This document shows positions 506 to 26,038 of a stretch of 26,342 nt of DNA, one piece after another. Source of the DNA: a virus. The stretch is taken from the IMG/VR virus record IMGVR_UViG_3300017967_000175, positions 1-26,342 of that record; one strand, 5' to 3'. The notes under the pieces are model-generated. The model saw only the letters and a list, made by a program, of their open reading frames with translations, was not told the DNA's origin and did not search any database. The position numbers and the translations under genes were made by a program. The first letter of the stretch is position 1; each line of letters starts with the position of its first letter.

Positions 506-526
506 AGTATAGTATTCATAAACACG

Positions 527-556
527 GAGCCTGACGTTTGTCAGGCTCTTTTTTTT
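527..556 (+). terminator. Rho-independent terminator after the sheath gene
   Basis: A 9-bp perfect stem (527-535 with 540-548, GAGCCTGAC pairing with GTCAGGCTC) closes a GTTT loop at 536-539 and is followed by eight T (549-556). It lies 21 bp after the sheath stop codon and just before a late promoter, so it separates sheath from tube transcription. Confidence 0.93.
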
Positions 557-8943: not shown

Positions 8944-8951
8944 AGTAGTAT

Positions 8952-8959
8952 TATTTATA
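8952..8959 (-). promoter_or_regulatory. T4-type late promoter (TATAAATA) for the terminase-like gene
   Basis: The box is an exact consensus on the minus strand, 8 nt before the ATG at 8943, the same spacing as at the tail tube gene. The predicted transcript begins 3 bases before the start codon. Confidence 0.82.
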
Positions 8960-8981
8960 TCTTGTTTCTAAGAATTAAACC

Positions 8982-9010
8982 TTGAATATAAAATAGAAAT
9001 ATATATTATA
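8982..9010 (+). promoter_or_regulatory. Possible host-type promoter for dUTPase and clamp loader
   Basis: TTGAAT at 8982-8987 and TATTAT at 9004-9009 are separated by 16 nt, a sigma70-like layout directed towards the dUTPase gene. No late box is found here, which would fit early or middle expression of replication genes. The region is extremely AT-rich, so chance matches are likely. Confidence 0.3.
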
Positions 9011-9015
9011 CACAT

Positions 9016-9501: not shown

Positions 9502-10425
9502 ATGGAAATCACCGACATCTGGGTAGAGAAGTATCGACCTGCAACATTAGATGATACAGTATTATCTAGTGATGTACGAGAATACTTTAATAATGTAAAA
9601 CAAAAAGGTAACCTACCTAATCTATTGTTAGTAGGAAACCCAGGGGTCGGTAAGACTACCTTAGCTAAAATCATTATCAACGATATTCTGAATGCTCAAT
9701 ATTTGTATATTAATGCGTCAGATGAAAACGGTATTGATACAATTAGAACTAAGGTACTCAATTTCGCTCAAACGCAAAGTATTTTCGGTACTACTAAAGT
9801 AATTATTCTCGATGAGTGTGATGGATTAAGTCTAGACGCTCAGAAAGCTTTGCGTAATAGTATTGAAGAGTATCATGATATTGCGAGATTTGTTCTCACT
9901 GCGAATTATCAGCATAAGATAATACCAGCTCTTCAATCCCGCTGTCATACTTTTCTTTTAACTCCACCGAAAGAAGGATATGTTAAAAGAGTACTACATG
10001 TTATTAATAAAGAGAATGTTCAAATTGATAGAGAGCATTTATCAGAAATAATTAATAAGTCATATCCTGATCTTCGTAAGTGTATCAATAGTATTCAAAA
10101 ATACACTATTTCAGGTAAAAAGGCTAATGTAGTAAATGGAGCAGAGAGTGTTATAAGTACATGCCTATCTTTATTGAAAAAGAAAGATATTTACAAAATG
10201 CGTAAGCATATTATTGAGAATGAAAGCGCATTCGGTAATGATTATGATACTCTCTTCAAAGTTTTATTCGATAAGTTATATAATAACGAGTTAAAGGTAT
10301 CCGACGAAAAAAACAGAGACTGTATGATTACAGTCTCTGAGTACTTTTATAGAAATAATATTGTAATTGATAAAGAGATTAACTTCTTTACTTGCTTGAT
10401 CGAACTATCAAGACATGTACTTTGA
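9502..10425 (+). CDS. 44: Sliding clamp loader ATPase subunit (gp44-like)
   Basis: This AAA+ protein of 307 residues (T4 gp44 has 319) loads the sliding clamp onto primer-template DNA. In T4-like phages the clamp also activates late transcription. Seen: N-terminal WVEKYRP box (7-13), typical of RFC and gp44 subunits; Walker A GNPGVGKT (45-52); Walker B VIILDECD (100-107); sensor 1 TAN (133-135); SRC arginine-finger motif (146-148); and a C-terminal region with PDLRKCINSIQKY. The partner gp62 is usually next to it but is not in this window; the next gene is on the other strand and overlaps by 18 bp. An inverted repeat inside its coding sequence works as a terminator for that opposing gene. Confidence 0.93.
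   Translation: MEITDIWVEKYRPATLDDTVLSSDVREYFNNVKQKGNLPNLLLVGNPGVGKTTLAKIIINDILNAQYLYINASDENGIDTIRTKVLNFAQTQSIFGTTKVIILDECDGLSLDAQKALRNSIEEYHDIARFVLTANYQHKIIPALQSRCHTFLLTPPKEGYVKRVLHVINKENVQIDREHLSEIINKSYPDLRKCINSIQKYTISGKKANVVNGAESVISTCLSLLKKKDIYKMRKHIIENESAFGNDYDTLFKVLFDKLYNNELKVSDEKNRDCMITVSEYFYRNNIVIDKEINFFTCLIELSRHVL
10307..10339 (-). terminator. Rho-independent terminator for the minus-strand gene, embedded in the clamp-loader gene
   Basis: On the minus strand an 11-bp perfect stem (10329-10339 with 10314-10324, CAGAGACTGTA pairing with TACAGTCTCTG) closes a 4-nt loop and is followed by seven T (10313-10307). It lies about 70 nt past the stop of the 10408-10914 gene and entirely within the coding sequence of the clamp loader, where it encodes part of the C-terminal domain. 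Confidence 0.85.
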
Positions 10426-10914
10426 AGTATAATTCTCGCTCGCGAGTTTATAGTCTCCTCCGTCAATCTTAGAGCTATTACCAACAGCTAGTTCTGGATC
10501 TTTTACAGGTTCAGGCTTAGCTGTAATATTTTCTTGCTTTTCATTCGTTTTGTCGATTCTTGTAGCTCTATGCTCATCACCAGTCATATCGAATTCAACT
10601 AACTCGATTGGTAATGATAATGCATTATTGTAAAATCCTGGAGCTTCTTCAACAGTAATATCAGCGATATACTCTTTAGAGCCAAGTCTGTTTGTTTCGT
10701 ATTGAGTAGACTTAATAGCACTAAAAAGAATGTATTTACCAGCTTCTTGTAACTGAATGATGTTATCAACGTAAGCTTTTCTGGCTTCGTCTAAGTTTTT
10801 ATACCAGTCAGAGCTTTTAACGTTAGAACGTATTTTGACGTAATCTCCTGGGATTGCGCTAGTTTTCTCATAACGCTGGTATACCTCTTCGTATAATTCA
10901 CTAAATTTTCCCAT
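10408..10914 (-). CDS. Unknown late protein
   Basis: This protein has 168 residues with no recognised domain. It opens with a helical, Tyr-rich part (FSELYEEVYQRYEKTSAIPGDYVKI), then has DEARKAYVDNIIQLQEAGKYILFSAIKS and a strand-rich middle (EYIADITVEEAPGF). The last 50 residues are polar and probably disordered (Lys/Glu/Pro). It stands alone on the minus strand with its own late-type promoter and its own terminator, so it is a single-gene late unit. It converges on the clamp-loader gene with an 18-bp overlap and diverges from the gp25 gene. A virion or assembly role is inferred only from late expression and neighbours. Confidence 0.82.
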   Translation of the reverse strand: MGKFSELYEEVYQRYEKTSAIPGDYVKIRSNVKSSDWYKNLDEARKAYVDNIIQLQEAGKYILFSAIKSTQYETNRLGSKEYIADITVEEAPGFYNNALSLPIELVEFDMTGDEHRATRIDKTNEKQENITAKPEPVKDPELAVGNSSKIDGGDYKLASENYTSKYMS

Positions 10915-10920
10915 TTTAAT

Positions 10921-10928
10921 TATTTATG
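10921..10928 (-). promoter_or_regulatory. Late promoter box CATAAATA for the 10408-10914 gene
   Basis: The box differs from TATAAATA only at the first base and lies 6 nt before the ATG at 10914 on the minus strand. The predicted leader is one base. Confidence 0.72.
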
Positions 10929-10942
10929 CTTTTTGTTTTATT

Positions 10943-10950
10943 ATTAAATA
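10943..10950 (+). promoter_or_regulatory. Late promoter-like box ATTAAATA for the gp25-gp6 operon
   Basis: The box matches TATAAATA at six of eight positions and lies 6 nt before the ATG at 10957. It is the mirror image of the promoter at 10921-10928 in its last six bases and spacer. It would drive the large baseplate and fibre operon. Confidence 0.58.
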
Positions 10951-10956
10951 ATTAAA

Positions 10957-11439
10957 ATGGCTATTAACTTAGATTTCTTAGATGAAAATAAGATAAAGGA
11001 TAAAACAACATCCTTTGCTTATAGTGATTTATCTTTGGATTTCGAGCTGAGCTCTGATATCAACAATACACCTGTTAACCGTGCTAACAACAAACAGGAT
11101 GTTAAGCTATTGTATGATGAACAAGCAATATATCAGAGTGTTAAAAATATATTCAATACTTCGCCTGGTCAAAAGATTCTTAATCCAACTTTTGGATTAG
11201 ATCTTAAACAATTCCTATTTTATCCTGTTAGTGAAAATACGGCTTTATTAATTGGTGAAGCTATACAAGAAAAATTACCTGTATACGAGCCTAGAATCAT
11301 AGTAGATGAAGTTAGTATAGTTGGTAGACCTAATAGAAACGAATACTTTATAGAACTAAGCATTATCGTTCCAACATTAAATAATAAAAAACAGTTAGTG
11401 AAAGGTGTGCTAGATACAGAAGGATTTAGATACAATTAA
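10957..11439 (+). CDS. 25: Baseplate wedge protein gp25-like
   Basis: This protein has 160 residues. The C-terminal 100 residues are a clear gp25/GpW-type domain: IYQSVKNIFNTSPGQKILNPTFGLDL (about 58-83), then LFYPVSENT..., and the conserved EPR triplet (111-113, in VYEPRIIV), ending with a strand pair. The domain resembles lysozyme in fold class but is structural. In T4 and other contractile systems it seeds sheath assembly on the baseplate. The first 50 residues are an extra polar extension compared with T4 gp25 (132 aa). The gp6 gene follows 2 bp after the stop, the usual pair of the wedge core. Confidence 0.93.
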   Translation: MAINLDFLDENKIKDKTTSFAYSDLSLDFELSSDINNTPVNRANNKQDVKLLYDEQAIYQSVKNIFNTSPGQKILNPTFGLDLKQFLFYPVSENTALLIGEAIQEKLPVYEPRIIVDEVSIVGRPNRNEYFIELSIIVPTLNNKKQLVKGVLDTEGFRYN

Positions 11440-11441
11440 TT

Positions 11442-13274
11442 ATGGATAACATAACAGAATTTAATTTACCTACAAATAGTTATGCATCATTTGATGCGCA
11501 AAGTATGAGAGATTTAATTATTGATAGACTCAATAACGACTCATCTATATCCTTTACTGATCAGAACTTCCAGGGAAGTAACCTTAATGCTGTAATTGAT
11601 ATTATCTCTTACTCCTTTCATACCCTTTTATTTTACTTAAATCAAACTAGTTCAGAAGCAGTTTTCACTGACACTCAACTATACGAAAATATGAATCGTA
11701 TAGTCAAGCTAATTGACTATAAGCCATTAGGTAAGCAAACTTCGATTGTTCCAATGTCACTGAAGGGTACTTCAAATCTATCTTCTGGATATTATACCCT
11801 ACCAAAGTTCTCATTTGTTACAGCAGGAGGTAAGACATACTCAACGTCTAAAGATTTAACCTTCCAGAAAGTTAATAGCTCTGTAACTGAAACAATATCT
11901 GCAATAGATAATACCCTATTCTATGAAGGTAAGTATAGAGAATATCCTGATGTGATAGCAATCGGGGAAGATTTTGAAACTATAACTCTATTGCCTGGAG
12001 ATAATATATTTGTAGATCATTTTAATATTTCTGTATTTGTACAAGAAAGCTCAAATAGTAAATGGTATGAATATAAAAGAGTACCTTCTTTATATTTAGC
12101 GAAGCCTAATGATAGATGTTTTGAATGTAGATTAAACCAAAATAAAAATTACGAGATTACTTTTGGTAATAACATTAACGGTCGTAAGTTAGTTGCTGAT
12201 GAAACTATTGGTATTTACTATATAGCTTCTACTGGTACTGAAGGTCAGATAACAAAAAATACTTTTGCAGATGCTTCAGTTAATATTTATAACACAACTA
12301 GGTATGATAGTATTTTTGCAGATATAAAAGATACGACTCTGAGTTATGTATCGGTAGCTAATAGTGTTAATATTAACGCAACAAATACTGAAGATAGTAC
12401 ATTGTATAGTGAAGAAGAAGATGTTGCTAATATAAGGTCTAATGCTCCTAAATTTTTTAGCTCAGAATATAAGTTAGTAACTAAATCAGATTATGAGAAT
12501 TTCATTGACCGTAATTTCAAAAACTTTATATATGATATCAAAGTAAGTAATAACTCTGACTATTTAAATATATTCAAAAAATATCTTACAGAAGATCTCA
12601 AATTAGATTCCTATATAGATTACAACAACGCATTGTTTAATCAATATTCTTTTAGTGATAGTTTTGATGTTAATAATATTTTTGTTACAATAGTTCCTAA
12701 ATTTAAAAAGGATAACTCTGTTGTAAAGAGATCTAATTATGTTTCAACAAATTTAAAAAATGAAATTTTATCCACATTACGTAATTACAAATTACTCAAC
12801 AGCGAAATTTCTTTTATTGATCCGGTCTATTTAACAGTAGATTTGTTACTCAAATCTGCCTCAGAGACAAATAAAATAGATTATAAAAACTATACTCAAT
12901 TAAGAATAGTAAGAAACTCTGCTACAATCGCAAATGATAATACTTTGAAAAATAAAGTATTCACAATAATCAATAACTACTTCAATCAAGCTAAACTCGG
13001 TCAGTTAGTAGATATAAAACAACTTAATACTGATATTACAGGTATTGAAGGGGTTGATAGTTTTTACACGTATAGAACAGATACAGGAGCAAAAGCAAAT
13101 GGTATAAGTTTGGGTATTTATAATCCAGTTTACACCGGAACAGACTTAGAAGTAATCGATACTAATTATCAATTGAAATATTTTCAAATACCATTTATTG
13201 AAAATATAGAAGATTTAAAAAATAAAATTATAGTTGAAACAGTTAATAAATCTAAAACAGTTATTGAATACTAA
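11442..13274 (+). CDS. 6: Baseplate wedge protein gp6-like (baseplate J family)
   Basis: This protein has 610 residues, close to T4 gp6 (660). The N-terminus (FDAQSMRDLIIDRLNND..., then FQGSNLNAVIDIISYSFHTLLFYLNQTSSEAVFTDTQLYENMNRIVKLIDYKP, about 18-96) is typical of gp6/baseplate-J proteins. It is followed by a beta-rich domain (LPKFSFVTAGGKTYSTSKDL), ITFGNNINGRKL near 240, and a later YKLVTKSDYENFIDRNFKNFIYDI region. The protein forms the dimeric wedge core and the iris that opens on infection. It is directly downstream of gp25 and upstream of the PKD protein gene (2 bp), all one operon. Confidence 0.9.
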   Translation: MDNITEFNLPTNSYASFDAQSMRDLIIDRLNNDSSISFTDQNFQGSNLNAVIDIISYSFHTLLFYLNQTSSEAVFTDTQLYENMNRIVKLIDYKPLGKQTSIVPMSLKGTSNLSSGYYTLPKFSFVTAGGKTYSTSKDLTFQKVNSSVTETISAIDNTLFYEGKYREYPDVIAIGEDFETITLLPGDNIFVDHFNISVFVQESSNSKWYEYKRVPSLYLAKPNDRCFECRLNQNKNYEITFGNNINGRKLVADETIGIYYIASTGTEGQITKNTFADASVNIYNTTRYDSIFADIKDTTLSYVSVANSVNINATNTEDSTLYSEEEDVANIRSNAPKFFSSEYKLVTKSDYENFIDRNFKNFIYDIKVSNNSDYLNIFKKYLTEDLKLDSYIDYNNALFNQYSFSDSFDVNNIFVTIVPKFKKDNSVVKRSNYVSTNLKNEILSTLRNYKLLNSEISFIDPVYLTVDLLLKSASETNKIDYKNYTQLRIVRNSATIANDNTLKNKVFTIINNYFNQAKLGQLVDIKQLNTDITGIEGVDSFYTYRTDTGAKANGISLGIYNPVYTGTDLEVIDTNYQLKYFQIPFIENIEDLKNKIIVETVNKSKTVIEY

Positions 13275-15418: not shown

Positions 15419-17577
15419 TTAATTTAAATACAGTTTCACCGCTAACATTTAACGAGTTTAGAAATTATTATAAAAGGTATAATAATTTTAATGAGCTAAA
15501 AGATTTATACAGTCAATATCTTGCTGATTATAGAAGTAATAAAAGTACAACTACTACAAGTGATAATAACTATATATCAGATAATTATAAAGAGTTTATT
15601 CGTAATGTAGATAATAATGATTTAAACAATGAAGTAAAAGAGTTTTTAAGTAATCTAGATTATAATAATCCATATGAACTCGATATAGCTGCTCATTATG
15701 TGTCTGATAATCTAAAAAGAGAGTTTACAAGATTAAAAACATATAGAGATGAATTAAAGTTTGTAAAAACAAAAAACAATCTTAAAACATCTAAAAAGGG
15801 TATTGAAATATATTTAAAGAACTTAATTGCTCGTTTGTTGAGTCAAGATAGTTTTATTAAAAATAATACTGATGTAACATCAGTTAACTTAAAAGAGATT
15901 ATTAATAAGCTCTCTATAAAATTCACCCAGTATTGTGCTAGTGAAATTGAAGTAACAGATAATATAACTGAAATAGAAAATAGTATAAAAGATACTATTG
16001 ATGATAGAGTTAAACAAGAATCTAAAAAAACTATACAAGTTCTTAATGTTACCAGTAAGGGAAAAAAATTATTACTTAGAACTAATACTAAAAAGAAGAT
16101 TTCAATTAATCAATTGTATACTGACCCTTTAAGGTTACCAGAGAGATTTTTTGCTAACGAAAATAAAACAATTGATAATTTAAACATTAATATCAAAGCA
16201 AAATTATTGGGTAAATACCTTGAAACAGATTTTTATTTTCTATCCGGTGATACTACAAAATACGAATTAACTAAAGTTATTTCAGTAGAAAATAGCGGTA
16301 GTTACTACAATAGATATAATCCAATTGTTTCTAATAAGTATGGTACTTTAATTAAAAAGGATAAAATACCATTTCAATTAAGCTTTCATAATGCTGGTTT
16401 AGCTCAGTCCTTATCTAAAAACTTAACATTTAATGTTAATGTATCAGCTGTGGATGGAGAATTTTATTTACCTGATCCTACTAAAGTACAGAGAGGGATA
16501 GGTCTCAGACCATCTAGTACAGAAAAGAATTCCCCGATTAATTTTATAAGTGATAATTTTTGGATAAAAAATAACGATCTTGATAGTATCAAAGTTAGTG
16601 ATATTGATACTCTAAAATCATATGGATATCAATCAAAAGAAAATTCATTAAAGTATACATCAACAGGTATCAATAGAGCTGAAGATGAAGTGAGTTTTTG
16701 GTCTGGTTCACAACAAAACATATGGAAGAATAGTGATGTATACAAACGGGAAGCACTCAACACTTGGCCAGAAGCTGAACGATTAGAAGACTTATTAATT
16801 AAAAATGAAACAGCTGTTGTATTAAAAAATGATATATACGGTAATGAATTTGTTTTGTATAAAAGTGTTAGTCCTAAAAGATATGCAGGAACAAGCTATA
16901 CTTTATATAATGAATCAGCTACCAGTACAGAAGACCTAACAAGCTGTGAATTATACGATGGATTGTACTTTAATAGTGTACTAAGCGCTATCACAGCAGC
17001 TGCACCGTCAGAATACACTAGCTTGACAGGTATGTACGATACTGTTTTAACTAACGATGTATCAACATGTCTAGGAGATGGTGGTTTTTTCGCGCCTTTA
17101 AGTACTGTAGATTGTAGTGCGGTATCAGGAGACGACTTAGTAGATGCTTATTATTTCGAAGGTCATCCATGTCCTGCTTCAGAGTTCGCGAGTATATACT
17201 TTGGTAGATATACAGTAAATAGTTTCAATACTGTTTCTATACCTAGTGGTTTCACTACATCTTATGAACTTACAAGCTTACAGAACCCATCTGTAAGTAC
17301 AATACCATTATATAATCAGAAATACATAACCGCTGGTTCATTATTTGTTAGAGATATAAGCTCACAAAAAGTATATACATTCTATGAGAAATTAAGTGGA
17401 GTATTAGGCAAATTATCTACAACTGTTAAAAATGCTATTAGTTCAAATGAAGTTGTAAACTTTGACGTTATTGGTAATACTTTATACATACAAACTTCCG
17501 CAAATACATTTACAGAGAGTTACACATATGATGGAACAGAGTTTAAACTTTCTCTTCCGTCGAATTCTATTATTTAA
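15415..17577 (+). CDS. Large virion structural protein, probably baseplate
   Basis: This protein has 720 residues. Residues 1-220 are helical and rich in Asn, Lys and acidic residues (NEFRNYYKRYNNFNELKDLYSQYLADY). The rest is beta-rich, with IDNLNINIKAKLLGKYLETDFYFLSGDT, a stretch FWSGSQQNIWKNSDVYKREALNTWPEAERLEDLL, a Cys- and Gly-containing middle (around LGDGGFFAPL), and a C-terminus with VVNFDVIGNTLYIQTSANTFTESYTYDGTEF. That last segment reads like a beta-propeller blade, and the start of the next protein reads like its continuation. It starts by ATGA overlap with the PKD gene. The position in the T4-like order is that of gp7/gp8; homology is not visible. Confidence 0.8.
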   Translation: MINLNTVSPLTFNEFRNYYKRYNNFNELKDLYSQYLADYRSNKSTTTTSDNNYISDNYKEFIRNVDNNDLNNEVKEFLSNLDYNNPYELDIAAHYVSDNLKREFTRLKTYRDELKFVKTKNNLKTSKKGIEIYLKNLIARLLSQDSFIKNNTDVTSVNLKEIINKLSIKFTQYCASEIEVTDNITEIENSIKDTIDDRVKQESKKTIQVLNVTSKGKKLLLRTNTKKKISINQLYTDPLRLPERFFANENKTIDNLNINIKAKLLGKYLETDFYFLSGDTTKYELTKVISVENSGSYYNRYNPIVSNKYGTLIKKDKIPFQLSFHNAGLAQSLSKNLTFNVNVSAVDGEFYLPDPTKVQRGIGLRPSSTEKNSPINFISDNFWIKNNDLDSIKVSDIDTLKSYGYQSKENSLKYTSTGINRAEDEVSFWSGSQQNIWKNSDVYKREALNTWPEAERLEDLLIKNETAVVLKNDIYGNEFVLYKSVSPKRYAGTSYTLYNESATSTEDLTSCELYDGLYFNSVLSAITAAAPSEYTSLTGMYDTVLTNDVSTCLGDGGFFAPLSTVDCSAVSGDDLVDAYYFEGHPCPASEFASIYFGRYTVNSFNTVSIPSGFTTSYELTSLQNPSVSTIPLYNQKYITAGSLFVRDISSQKVYTFYEKLSGVLGKLSTTVKNAISSNEVVNFDVIGNTLYIQTSANTFTESYTYDGTEFKLSLPSNSII

Positions 17578-24764: not shown

Positions 24765-25499
24765 TTAGAAGCTAATAGCTAAACCACCCGACCAAACTAA
24801 ATCTCCATCAAGCTCTGCTGCCGCAAAATTGAAATTCTGCACATCAAAACTATTATCAATGTACTTGGCTGCAACAAATGGCTGGATCTGCCACTTAGTC
24901 AATGCAAGCCTAGCGCCAATATCAACGGACTTATAGTCTTCAAACATATGATATGAGATATTAGGAGTGAACTTAAACCACTCGTCTCCCTTAAGCTCCA
25001 AAGAATACTCCTTGGTTAAGCCGAAAGTCAAACCATTTTGCTCAATCCTCCAGTCATGAGTATAACTAACATATGGCATAACCCATGGAGTAACTAATCC
25101 TACAGTACCAGCAAGCTCAGAATTCTGAGGAACATTAAGATCAGTTCTACGGGTAGTAACTACCCCGTCTAACCGAAGTGCATACTTGTCAGACCCATTC
25201 AAGGATAAAGACTTTCCAGCTCCTACACTCCAAAAGGAATCAGTATTGTCAGTAATAATAGTCCCACTACCATACAAGTCTACAGGAATAAAGTTATTCT
25301 CTTCTGGAGAATGTAAATTCAATCCAATATACCGAGCGTATCCACCAGTGTAAGCAACACCCTTACTAAGCAATTGACCTGAATACCCAGCCTCAATAGA
25401 GAAACTAGGCTTAATAATAGCTTTTTCGACGTCATTAGTCTGTGCGAAGATATTTAAACTAATAAGCATCGCACTAATCGTTAACAATGTTTTATTCAT
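24765..25499 (-). CDS. Secreted outer-membrane beta-barrel protein, late expressed
   Basis: This protein has 244 residues. Residues 1-20 are a signal peptide: positive start MNK, hydrophobic core LLTISAMLISLNIF, then AQ with likely cleavage near residue 19-20. The mature part alternates polar and hydrophobic residues in many strands (FSIEAGYSGQLL, YARYIGLNL, SFWSVGAGKSL, VMPYVSYTHDW, SVDIGARLAL) and ends in GGLAISF. A C-terminal Phe on a last amphipathic strand is the usual signal for insertion by the BAM complex. It would sit in the host outer membrane late in infection. It has an exact late promoter and its own terminator, so it is a single-gene unit. A host-derived origin is likely. Its role could be receptor masking or uptake. 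Confidence 0.85.
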   Translation of the reverse strand: MNKTLLTISAMLISLNIFAQTNDVEKAIIKPSFSIEAGYSGQLLSKGVAYTGGYARYIGLNLHSPEENNFIPVDLYGSGTIITDNTDSFWSVGAGKSLSLNGSDKYALRLDGVVTTRRTDLNVPQNSELAGTVGLVTPWVMPYVSYTHDWRIEQNGLTFGLTKEYSLELKGDEWFKFTPNISYHMFEDYKSVDIGARLALTKWQIQPFVAAKYIDNSFDVQNFNFAAAELDGDLVWSGGLAISF

Positions 25500-25744: not shown

Positions 25745-26038
25745 TCATACCTCAATCTCCTTCCTAATATAGTACTTCCAGAAAAACATAGTCAGGATCG
25801 TCATACAGATACCAGAACTATAGTTAATCACTACCCAGAATCTAGCTATCTCATTACTCGTTATATAGACTAAACCTGAACAATAACCTATGAGGTTGAG
25901 AATCAGCATTCCTAATGATACGTCTTTTGAGCTCTTATTCCTAATCATCCTGATAATCTGCGGGAAATACGCTATAGCGAAACATACAGATAACAAGATT
26001 CCGGATGTCTGCTTTATGATCTCTGGTATACTCTCCAT
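25745..26038 (-). CDS. PQ-loop membrane protein, SemiSWEET-like
   Basis: This protein has 97 residues with three hydrophobic segments (about 11-32, 41-60 and 66-88). The first ends in a PQ motif (FPQIIRMIRNKSSKDVS, PQ at 26-27), with S-x-x-D-V-S and a Leu/Asn-rich second helix (LGMLILNLIGYCSGLVY), the pattern of PQ-loop/MtN3 (SWEET) half-transporters. Bacterial SemiSWEETs of 85-100 residues form dimers and move sugars. It lies in the inner membrane and is positioned 1 bp after a small basic peptide gene, with GGAAGAAG upstream as a possible ribosome binding site. Substrate cannot be read from the sequence, and a role unrelated to sugar is possible. Confidence 0.8.
   Translation of the reverse strand: MESIPEIIKQTSGILLSVCFAIAYFPQIIRMIRNKSSKDVSLGMLILNLIGYCSGLVYITSNEIARFWVVINYSSGICMTILTMFFWKYYIRKEIEV

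What the first reader, a model, noticed from the sequence alone, without database searches (positions are those of the whole stretch)
10911..10960. Perfect 16-bp inverted repeat holding two divergent late promoters and both start codons
The arms at 10911-10926 and 10945-10960 are exactly complementary and contain the promoter end, the spacer and the first codon plus one base of each divergent gene. Symmetry extending into the coding start suggests a duplicated promoter-plus-start cassette or selection for coordinated firing of both units. The 18-bp gap is so short that two polymerases can hardly be loaded at once.
Basis: seen in the sequence. Interest (0 to 1): 0.7.

Follow-up and report, generated by a model that had tools for sequence, protein, structure and literature searches.

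The report
Back-to-back phage late-gene promoter pair
A 42-base stretch between two genes of an uncultivated T4-like phage holds two late promoters facing opposite ways, each ending almost on its gene's start codon; the mirror symmetry mostly reflects two copies of the phage's usual promoter, but the stretch as a whole is unusually well conserved, for a reason still unknown.

Summary
The perfect 16-bp inverted repeat is real; 0 of 200 dinucleotide shuffles give one. Each arm is a T4-type late promoter box (TAAATA), a 6-nt spacer, ATG and G. They head gp25 (baseplate wedge) and a conserved 168-aa gene of unknown function. The repeat is best explained as two copies of this phage's preferred promoter-plus-start unit: the same 16-mer heads a third, unpaired gene in a 127-kb relative. 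A fifth of that relative's genes have TAAATA 4-9 nt before their start (predicted leader mostly 0-1 nt), and almost none of these has a Shine-Dalgarno. The symmetry is not maintained: in relatives the gp25 arm changes alone, and in a deeper clade only the two TAAATAATT cores remain, with leaders of 6 and 7 nt. The divergent gene pair is kept in all 80 loci (41-99% identity). Within each clade the 42- or 46-bp intergenic, spacer included, is 83-100% identical (L078 has another spacer), while fourfold sites average 40-55% and other late-promoter regions 39-59%. Polymerase competition is inferred from geometry; why the spacer is conserved is unexplained. Verdict: new variant of a known kind; the symmetry interpretation is mostly not supported.

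The parts
10915..10956 (.). 42-bp intergenic element with two back-to-back late promoters
   Evidence: 93-100% identical among ten clade A genomes, against 39-59% upstream of other late genes and 40-55% at fourfold sites
10911..10926 (.). left arm of the inverted repeat (minus-strand promoter box, leader, ATG and next base)
   Evidence: invariant in clade A
10945..10960 (.). right arm of the inverted repeat (plus-strand promoter box, leader, ATG and next base)
   Evidence: varies at the base before ATG and the base after it in clade A
10921..10926 (-). late promoter box TAAATA (8-mer CATAAATA), 6 nt before the ATG of the 168-aa gene
   Evidence: box identical in all clade A and clade B loci compared
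10945..10950 (+). late promoter box TAAATA (8-mer ATTAAATA, a weaker match to TATAAATA), 6 nt before the gp25 ATG
   Evidence: box identical in all clade A and clade B loci compared
10927..10944 (.). 18-bp spacer TGCTTTTTGTTTTATTAT between the two boxes; conserved, role unknown
   Evidence: only 3 variable columns among clade A haplotypes; different in L078 and in clade B
10956..10956 (+). inferred transcription start for gp25, 1 nt before ATG
   Evidence: inference from T4 numbering, box at -13 to -6 (PMC2988020); not measured
10915..10915 (-). inferred transcription start for the 168-aa gene, 1 nt before ATG
   Evidence: inference from T4 numbering; not measured
10408..10914 (-). 168-aa gene of unknown function, conserved next to gp25 in all 80 loci
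   Evidence: no PHROG or Pfam family, no match in phage records; relatives; model pLDDT 65 without a fold match
10957..11439 (+). gp25-like baseplate wedge subunit
   Evidence: phrog_261 E 1.4e-23, phrog_43 E 1.1e-15
11442..13274 (+). gp6-like baseplate wedge subunit directly downstream of gp25
   Evidence: phrog_219 E 5e-37

Best explanation
The site is a compact pair of back-to-back T4-type late promoters. Each TAAATA box is read by RNA polymerase carrying the phage late sigma factor gp55 (inferred). With T4 numbering (box at -13 to -6), transcription would start 1 nt before each ATG, so both mRNAs would be practically leaderless (inferred). One promoter fires gp25-gp6, the other the 168-aa late gene. 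The inverted repeat arises because both units are copies of the phage's preferred promoter-plus-start sequence TAAATAATT-AAA-ATGG, not because mirror symmetry is selected (supported by relatives). The inferred start points are 41 bp apart, so two polymerases probably cannot sit there together and would alternate (inferred). The whole intergenic is under purifying selection at the DNA level (shown); why the spacer is constrained is not known.
For: TAAATA 4-9 nt before the start of 31 of 156 genes in G001, peak 5-6 nt; TATAAATA at that distance in G001 7 of 12 and G013 10 of 19, against T4 0 of 24, P-SSM2 0 of 13, RM378 0 of 4. gp55 in G001, G002, G013. Shine-Dalgarno-like motif in 1 of 97 such genes in G001, G013 and G016. 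Same 16-mer at a third, unpaired gene in G001. One arm drifts alone and the leaders differ in clade B, while both TAAATA boxes are invariant. Divergent pair kept in 80 of 80 loci. Other tight divergent pairs in the same genomes.
Against: No transcript data. The plus box is a weaker match (ATTAAATA). The spacer is conserved although T4 late promoters have no conserved upstream element, so something is missing from the account. The gp55 profile finds nothing in G016, a 119-kb fragment. Exact identity of the arms is somewhat more than independent draws would give (3 of 465 pairs).
Confidence: 0.75

Rival explanations
1. RNA hairpin control: the repeat folds in read-through transcripts from upstream middle genes and hides the AUG, while transcripts from the late promoter lack the 5' arm and are translated, as in T4 genes e, soc, 49 and I-TevI.
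For: Window RNA folds with the AUG inside a 16-bp stem, -14.2 kcal/mol, z -4.2; the other strand gives -13.5, z -3.6. T4 precedents in PMC3014915.
Against: In clade A relatives the plus-arm changes break the pairs at the start codon with no compensating change in the minus arm. The L010, L023, L078 and clade B sequences fold near or within the shuffle range (z from -1.8 to 0.5), with the AUG outside the stem in L010, L023, L135 and L082; the L-locus stretches folded were cut slightly short on the minus-gene side.
Confidence: 0.1
2. The conserved spacer holds a third element (binding site of a phage or host regulator, an extra promoter, or a replication signal) that makes the pair a regulated switch.
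For: Spacer nearly invariant in clade A and 86% identical in clade B, far above fourfold sites.
Against: The spacer differs between clades and is replaced in L078; it is not shared with other divergent late pairs of the same genomes; its MotA-box-like part has no MotA to read it.
Confidence: 0.2
3. An inverted duplication of a promoter-plus-start cassette kept identical by gene conversion, or a recombination junction between gene modules (compare the mobile promoter cassettes described for T4-type phages, recalled from memory).
For: gp25 and the tail genes diverge far more between groups than the 168-aa gene, gp44 and dut do. Exact arm identity is somewhat more than independent draws would give.
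Against: Arms change independently. Trees of the two flanking genes are not clearly in conflict (p-AU 0.126; 0.041 for a grouping named after seeing the tree). An exchanged tract would have to be confined to about 50 bp, because flanking synonymous sites are near saturation.
Confidence: 0.05

Closest known systems
T4 late promoters (TATAAATA, gp55-dependent)
   Same: Same box; gp55 in relatives; A+T-rich stretch directly downstream of the box; late virion gene behind it
   Different: Box 5-6 nt from ATG instead of mostly 16-50 nt; no Shine-Dalgarno; conserved spacer upstream of each box
Bidirectional promoters of bacteria (Warman and colleagues, PMC12825309)
   Same: Opposed promoters so close that polymerases should exclude each other
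   Different: Those share one -10 element with starts most often 18 (also 10 or 23) bp apart; here two separate boxes with starts about 41 bp apart. The palindromic TAAATATTTA site of G001 is nearer to that type
T4 e, soc, 49 and I-TevI hairpins with a late promoter in the 5' arm (PMC3014915)
   Same: Late promoter and start codon inside a hairpin-forming repeat in the window
   Different: Pairing at the start codon not conserved in relatives
T4 gene 25 split ribosome binding site (PMC3014915)
   Same: Same gene, structure next to its start codon
   Different: T4 uses a stem between Shine-Dalgarno and AUG of a longer mRNA; here no Shine-Dalgarno and practically no leader predicted
Far-T4 phages and Rhodothermus phage RM378
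   Same: Uncultivated distant T4-like phages; PhoH and T4 capsid genes in G001; Shine-Dalgarno motifs rare in RM378 too
   Different: Membership not tested by a capsid tree; RM378 gives no gp55 match with phrog_234 and lacks TAAATA next to ATG

Membership tests
T4-type late promoter | TATAAATA-like 8-bp box | tested here: met
   CATAAATA (minus) and ATTAAATA (plus); TAAATA invariant in relatives
T4-type late promoter | gp55 late sigma factor encoded by the phage | tested here: met
   phrog_234 in G001, G002, G013; not found in fragment G016; the window itself is a 26-kb fragment
T4-type late promoter | transcription start about one helical turn downstream, gp33/gp45 activation | not testable with these tools
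   no RNA data; candidate gp45 of G001 had no PHROG match
T4-type late promoter | no conserved sequence upstream of the box | tested here: not met
   spacer conserved within clades; each box lies in the other's upstream region, so part of this may come from the paired arrangement
Bidirectional promoter (Warman type) | shared -10 element, starts most often 18 bp apart (10 and 23 also common) | tested here: not met
   two boxes 18 bp apart, inferred starts 41 bp apart
Leaderless gene start | 5' end of mRNA at or within a few nt of the start codon; no Shine-Dalgarno | tested here: inconclusive
   spacing and lack of Shine-Dalgarno agree; the 5' ends themselves are not mapped
T4 e-type AUG-hiding hairpin | start codon paired in read-through RNA, conserved in relatives | tested here: not met
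   paired in the window, pairs at the start codon lost in several clade A relatives and clade B
Far-T4 phages | capsid gene groups with the Far-T4/RM378 clade | not tested
   G001 capsid is phrog_138 with about 35% identity to cyanophage capsids; no tree with Far-T4 made

The most novel reading that the evidence does not exclude
The 42-46-bp element is a regulated two-way switch: a dedicated factor reads the conserved spacer and, together with polymerase exclusion between two leaderless late promoters, sets the ratio or timing of the gp25-gp6 baseplate proteins against the unknown 168-aa protein.
Probability: 0.2. Interest if true: 0.7.

Novelty: new variant of a known kind. Interest (0 to 1): 0.5.

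Why it matters
It predicts that a large group of uncultivated T4-like phages makes late mRNAs with almost no leader, unlike T4, and packs opposing late promoters into gaps as small as 13 bp between start codons. That gives a testable case of how a phage late sigma factor works in a host that seems not to use Shine-Dalgarno sequences, and a compact natural system for studying competition between opposed polymerases.

Tried and rejected
Blastn and tblastn for cultured relatives of the site and of the 168-aa protein: none. MotA-driven middle promoter (the spacer's TATGCTTTT resembles the MotA box): no MotA in G001, G002, G013 or G016, T4 control positive. Small ORF in the spacer (ATG at 10926, 9 codons, read directly): broken in L078 and mostly absent in clade B. 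Fold of the 168-aa protein: mean pLDDT 65, no Foldseek match at E<=0.001. Recombination junction: trees not clearly in conflict. A backwards-motif control (ATAAAT) for the spacing count was uninformative because it overlaps TATAAATA; T4, P-SSM2 and RM378 served as controls instead. Papers on leaderless late genes in T4-like phages: none found in the open-access library.

Full report
What is there. The arms at 10911-10926 and 10945-10960 are perfect reverse complements with 18 nt between them. Of perfect repeats with arms of 13 bp or more and a gap of up to 60, it is the only one in the window, and none of 200 dinucleotide shuffles contains one of 16 bp. On each strand the arm reads TAAATA-ATTAAA-ATG-G. 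The left gene (168 aa, minus strand) has no known family; the right gene is a gp25-like baseplate wedge subunit followed by a gp6-like one. The window is a 26-kb fragment of an uncultivated virus, T4-like by its tail, clamp loader and dUTPase genes.

What the arms are. In the 127-kb relative G001, 31 of 156 called genes have TAAATA 4-9 nt before their start, 21 of them at 5 or 6 nt. In T4 none of 24 TATAAATA boxes with an ORF start within 80 nt lies 4-9 nt away; in P-SSM2 0 of 13, in RM378 0 of 4; in G001 7 of 12, in G013 10 of 19, in the Pelagibacter phage HTVC008M 6 of 16. Relatives G001, G002 and G013 encode the late sigma factor gp55. The T4 box runs from -13 to -6 (PMC2988020), so 5 or 6 nt to ATG means a leader of 0 or 1 nt. 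Shine-Dalgarno-like motifs are rare: 5-12% of other genes in G001, G013 and G016 against 55% in T4, and in 1 of 97 genes with a TAAATA start in those three genomes (a simple ORF caller, so gene starts are approximate). Hence these look like late promoters that abut the start codon. The leader length is inferred, not measured.

Why the arms match. The pooled units favour T after TAAATA[A/T] and A or T up to the ATG. The exact 16-mer TAAATAATTAAAATGG heads a third, unpaired gene in G001 at 91256. Among 465 pairs of units in G001 three are identical throughout, all of them this 16-mer. So identity between two units is uncommon but needs no duplication or selected symmetry.

Does symmetry persist? 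In the nearest relatives (clade A; 18 loci with the left gene 72-99% identical) the minus arm never changes, while the plus arm changes at the base before ATG (A to T) and the base after it (G to C). In L078 (69%) the plus side reads TAAATACTTAAAATGG and the spacer is different. In the deeper clade B (41-52%) the intergenic is 46 bp (45 in two loci), both TAAATAATT cores stay, the boxes are 21 bp apart and the leaders are mostly 6 and 7 nt. The divergent pair of genes is kept in 80 of 80 loci.

What is unusual. The 42 bp are 93-100% identical among ten clade A genomes. The same length upstream of other late genes (gp19, g8943m, g20088, g17597, g25499m) averages 39-59%; fourfold sites in gp25, the left gene and gp44 average 40-55%. 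The one exception, upstream of g3292, is coding sequence of the preceding gene compared in only three close genomes. In clade B the 46 bp average 91% (lowest 83%) against 46-48% at fourfold sites; the two boxes are 100%, the leaders 92-93%, the spacer 86%. So the element is under strong DNA-level constraint. Two opposed promoters explain the boxes and leaders. They do not obviously explain the spacer, since T4 late promoters have no conserved upstream sequence. The spacer also differs between clades and from the spacers of other divergent pairs in the same genomes.

How it probably works. gp55-polymerase binds one box and transcribes gp25 onward, or binds the other and transcribes the 168-aa gene. 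The start points inferred from T4 numbering are 10956 (plus) and 10915 (minus), 41 bp apart. T4 late complexes extend upstream of the box, by 13 bp more with the clamp, so both can hardly sit there at once. Competition is therefore likely but untested; in E. coli, bidirectional promoters at basal activity show little competition (PMC12825309). The same phages carry other tight pairs: gaps between boxes of 18, 8 and -10 bp in G001 (the last a palindrome TAAATATTTA with 13 bp between the two start codons), 1 to 45 bp in G013, and -10 to 29 bp in G016. The gp25 site is one of a family of such arrangements.

Rivals. A hairpin hiding AUG in read-through RNA fits the window (-14.2 kcal/mol, z -4.2) and has T4 precedents, but its pairing at the start codon is lost without compensation in relatives. 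A recombination junction or gene conversion is not supported by the flanking trees or by the near-saturated synonymous sites right beside the element. A MotA-type middle promoter is unlikely, MotA not being found. A specific factor reading the spacer is not excluded and is the most novel reading left.

Novelty. T4 late promoters, divergent bacterial promoters and leaderless genes are all known. The combination of opposed late promoters abutting both start codons, conserved across an uncultivated T4-like group, was not found in the papers searched (open-access library only). It is a new variant of a known kind. The host is not known; rare Shine-Dalgarno motifs fit a Bacteroidota host (PMC6847099), and Far-T4 phages have been linked to marine Bacteroidetes (PMC7198788), but this is inference, and in Flavobacterium johnsoniae most transcripts are leadered.

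Noticed in passing
window 520-555: A terminator-like hairpin followed by a run of T lies just before the gp19 late promoter.
   Followed up: no
L048 (G001 38158-38190) and L054 (G003 about 11160-11190): A palindromic late promoter TAAATATTTA serves two divergent ORFs with only 13 bp between the two start codons; the sequence is identical in both relatives once oriented.
   Followed up: partly
L188 (G013 about 135835-135864) and L192 (G016 about 16783-16812): Another divergent late pair with the two TAAATA boxes 1 bp apart, conserved between clade B genomes.
   Followed up: partly
window 8944-9015: The dut / 151-aa gene intergenic keeps a conserved AACCTTGA ... TATCATA stretch in relatives, looking like an early or middle promoter for dut.
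   Followed up: no
window 25745-26038: A 97-aa protein with a PQ-loop repeat (PF04193, E 9.5e-12), the fold of small sugar transporters, conserved in G001 and G006.
   Followed up: no
window 24765-25499: A 244-aa protein with an apparent signal peptide, no Pfam or PHROG match, behind a late promoter.
   Followed up: no
L070, L072, L073, L074, L077 and L075: Unrelated viral contigs with near-symmetric divergent TAAATAATT pairs next to ATG, suggesting that the arrangement recurs in other phages.
   Followed up: partly
L154-L161 (Pelagibacter phage HTVC008M): A cultured phage also has TAAATA 5 nt before ATG at 12 genes and one divergent pair with a 4-bp gap, so leader length could be measured there.
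   Followed up: partly
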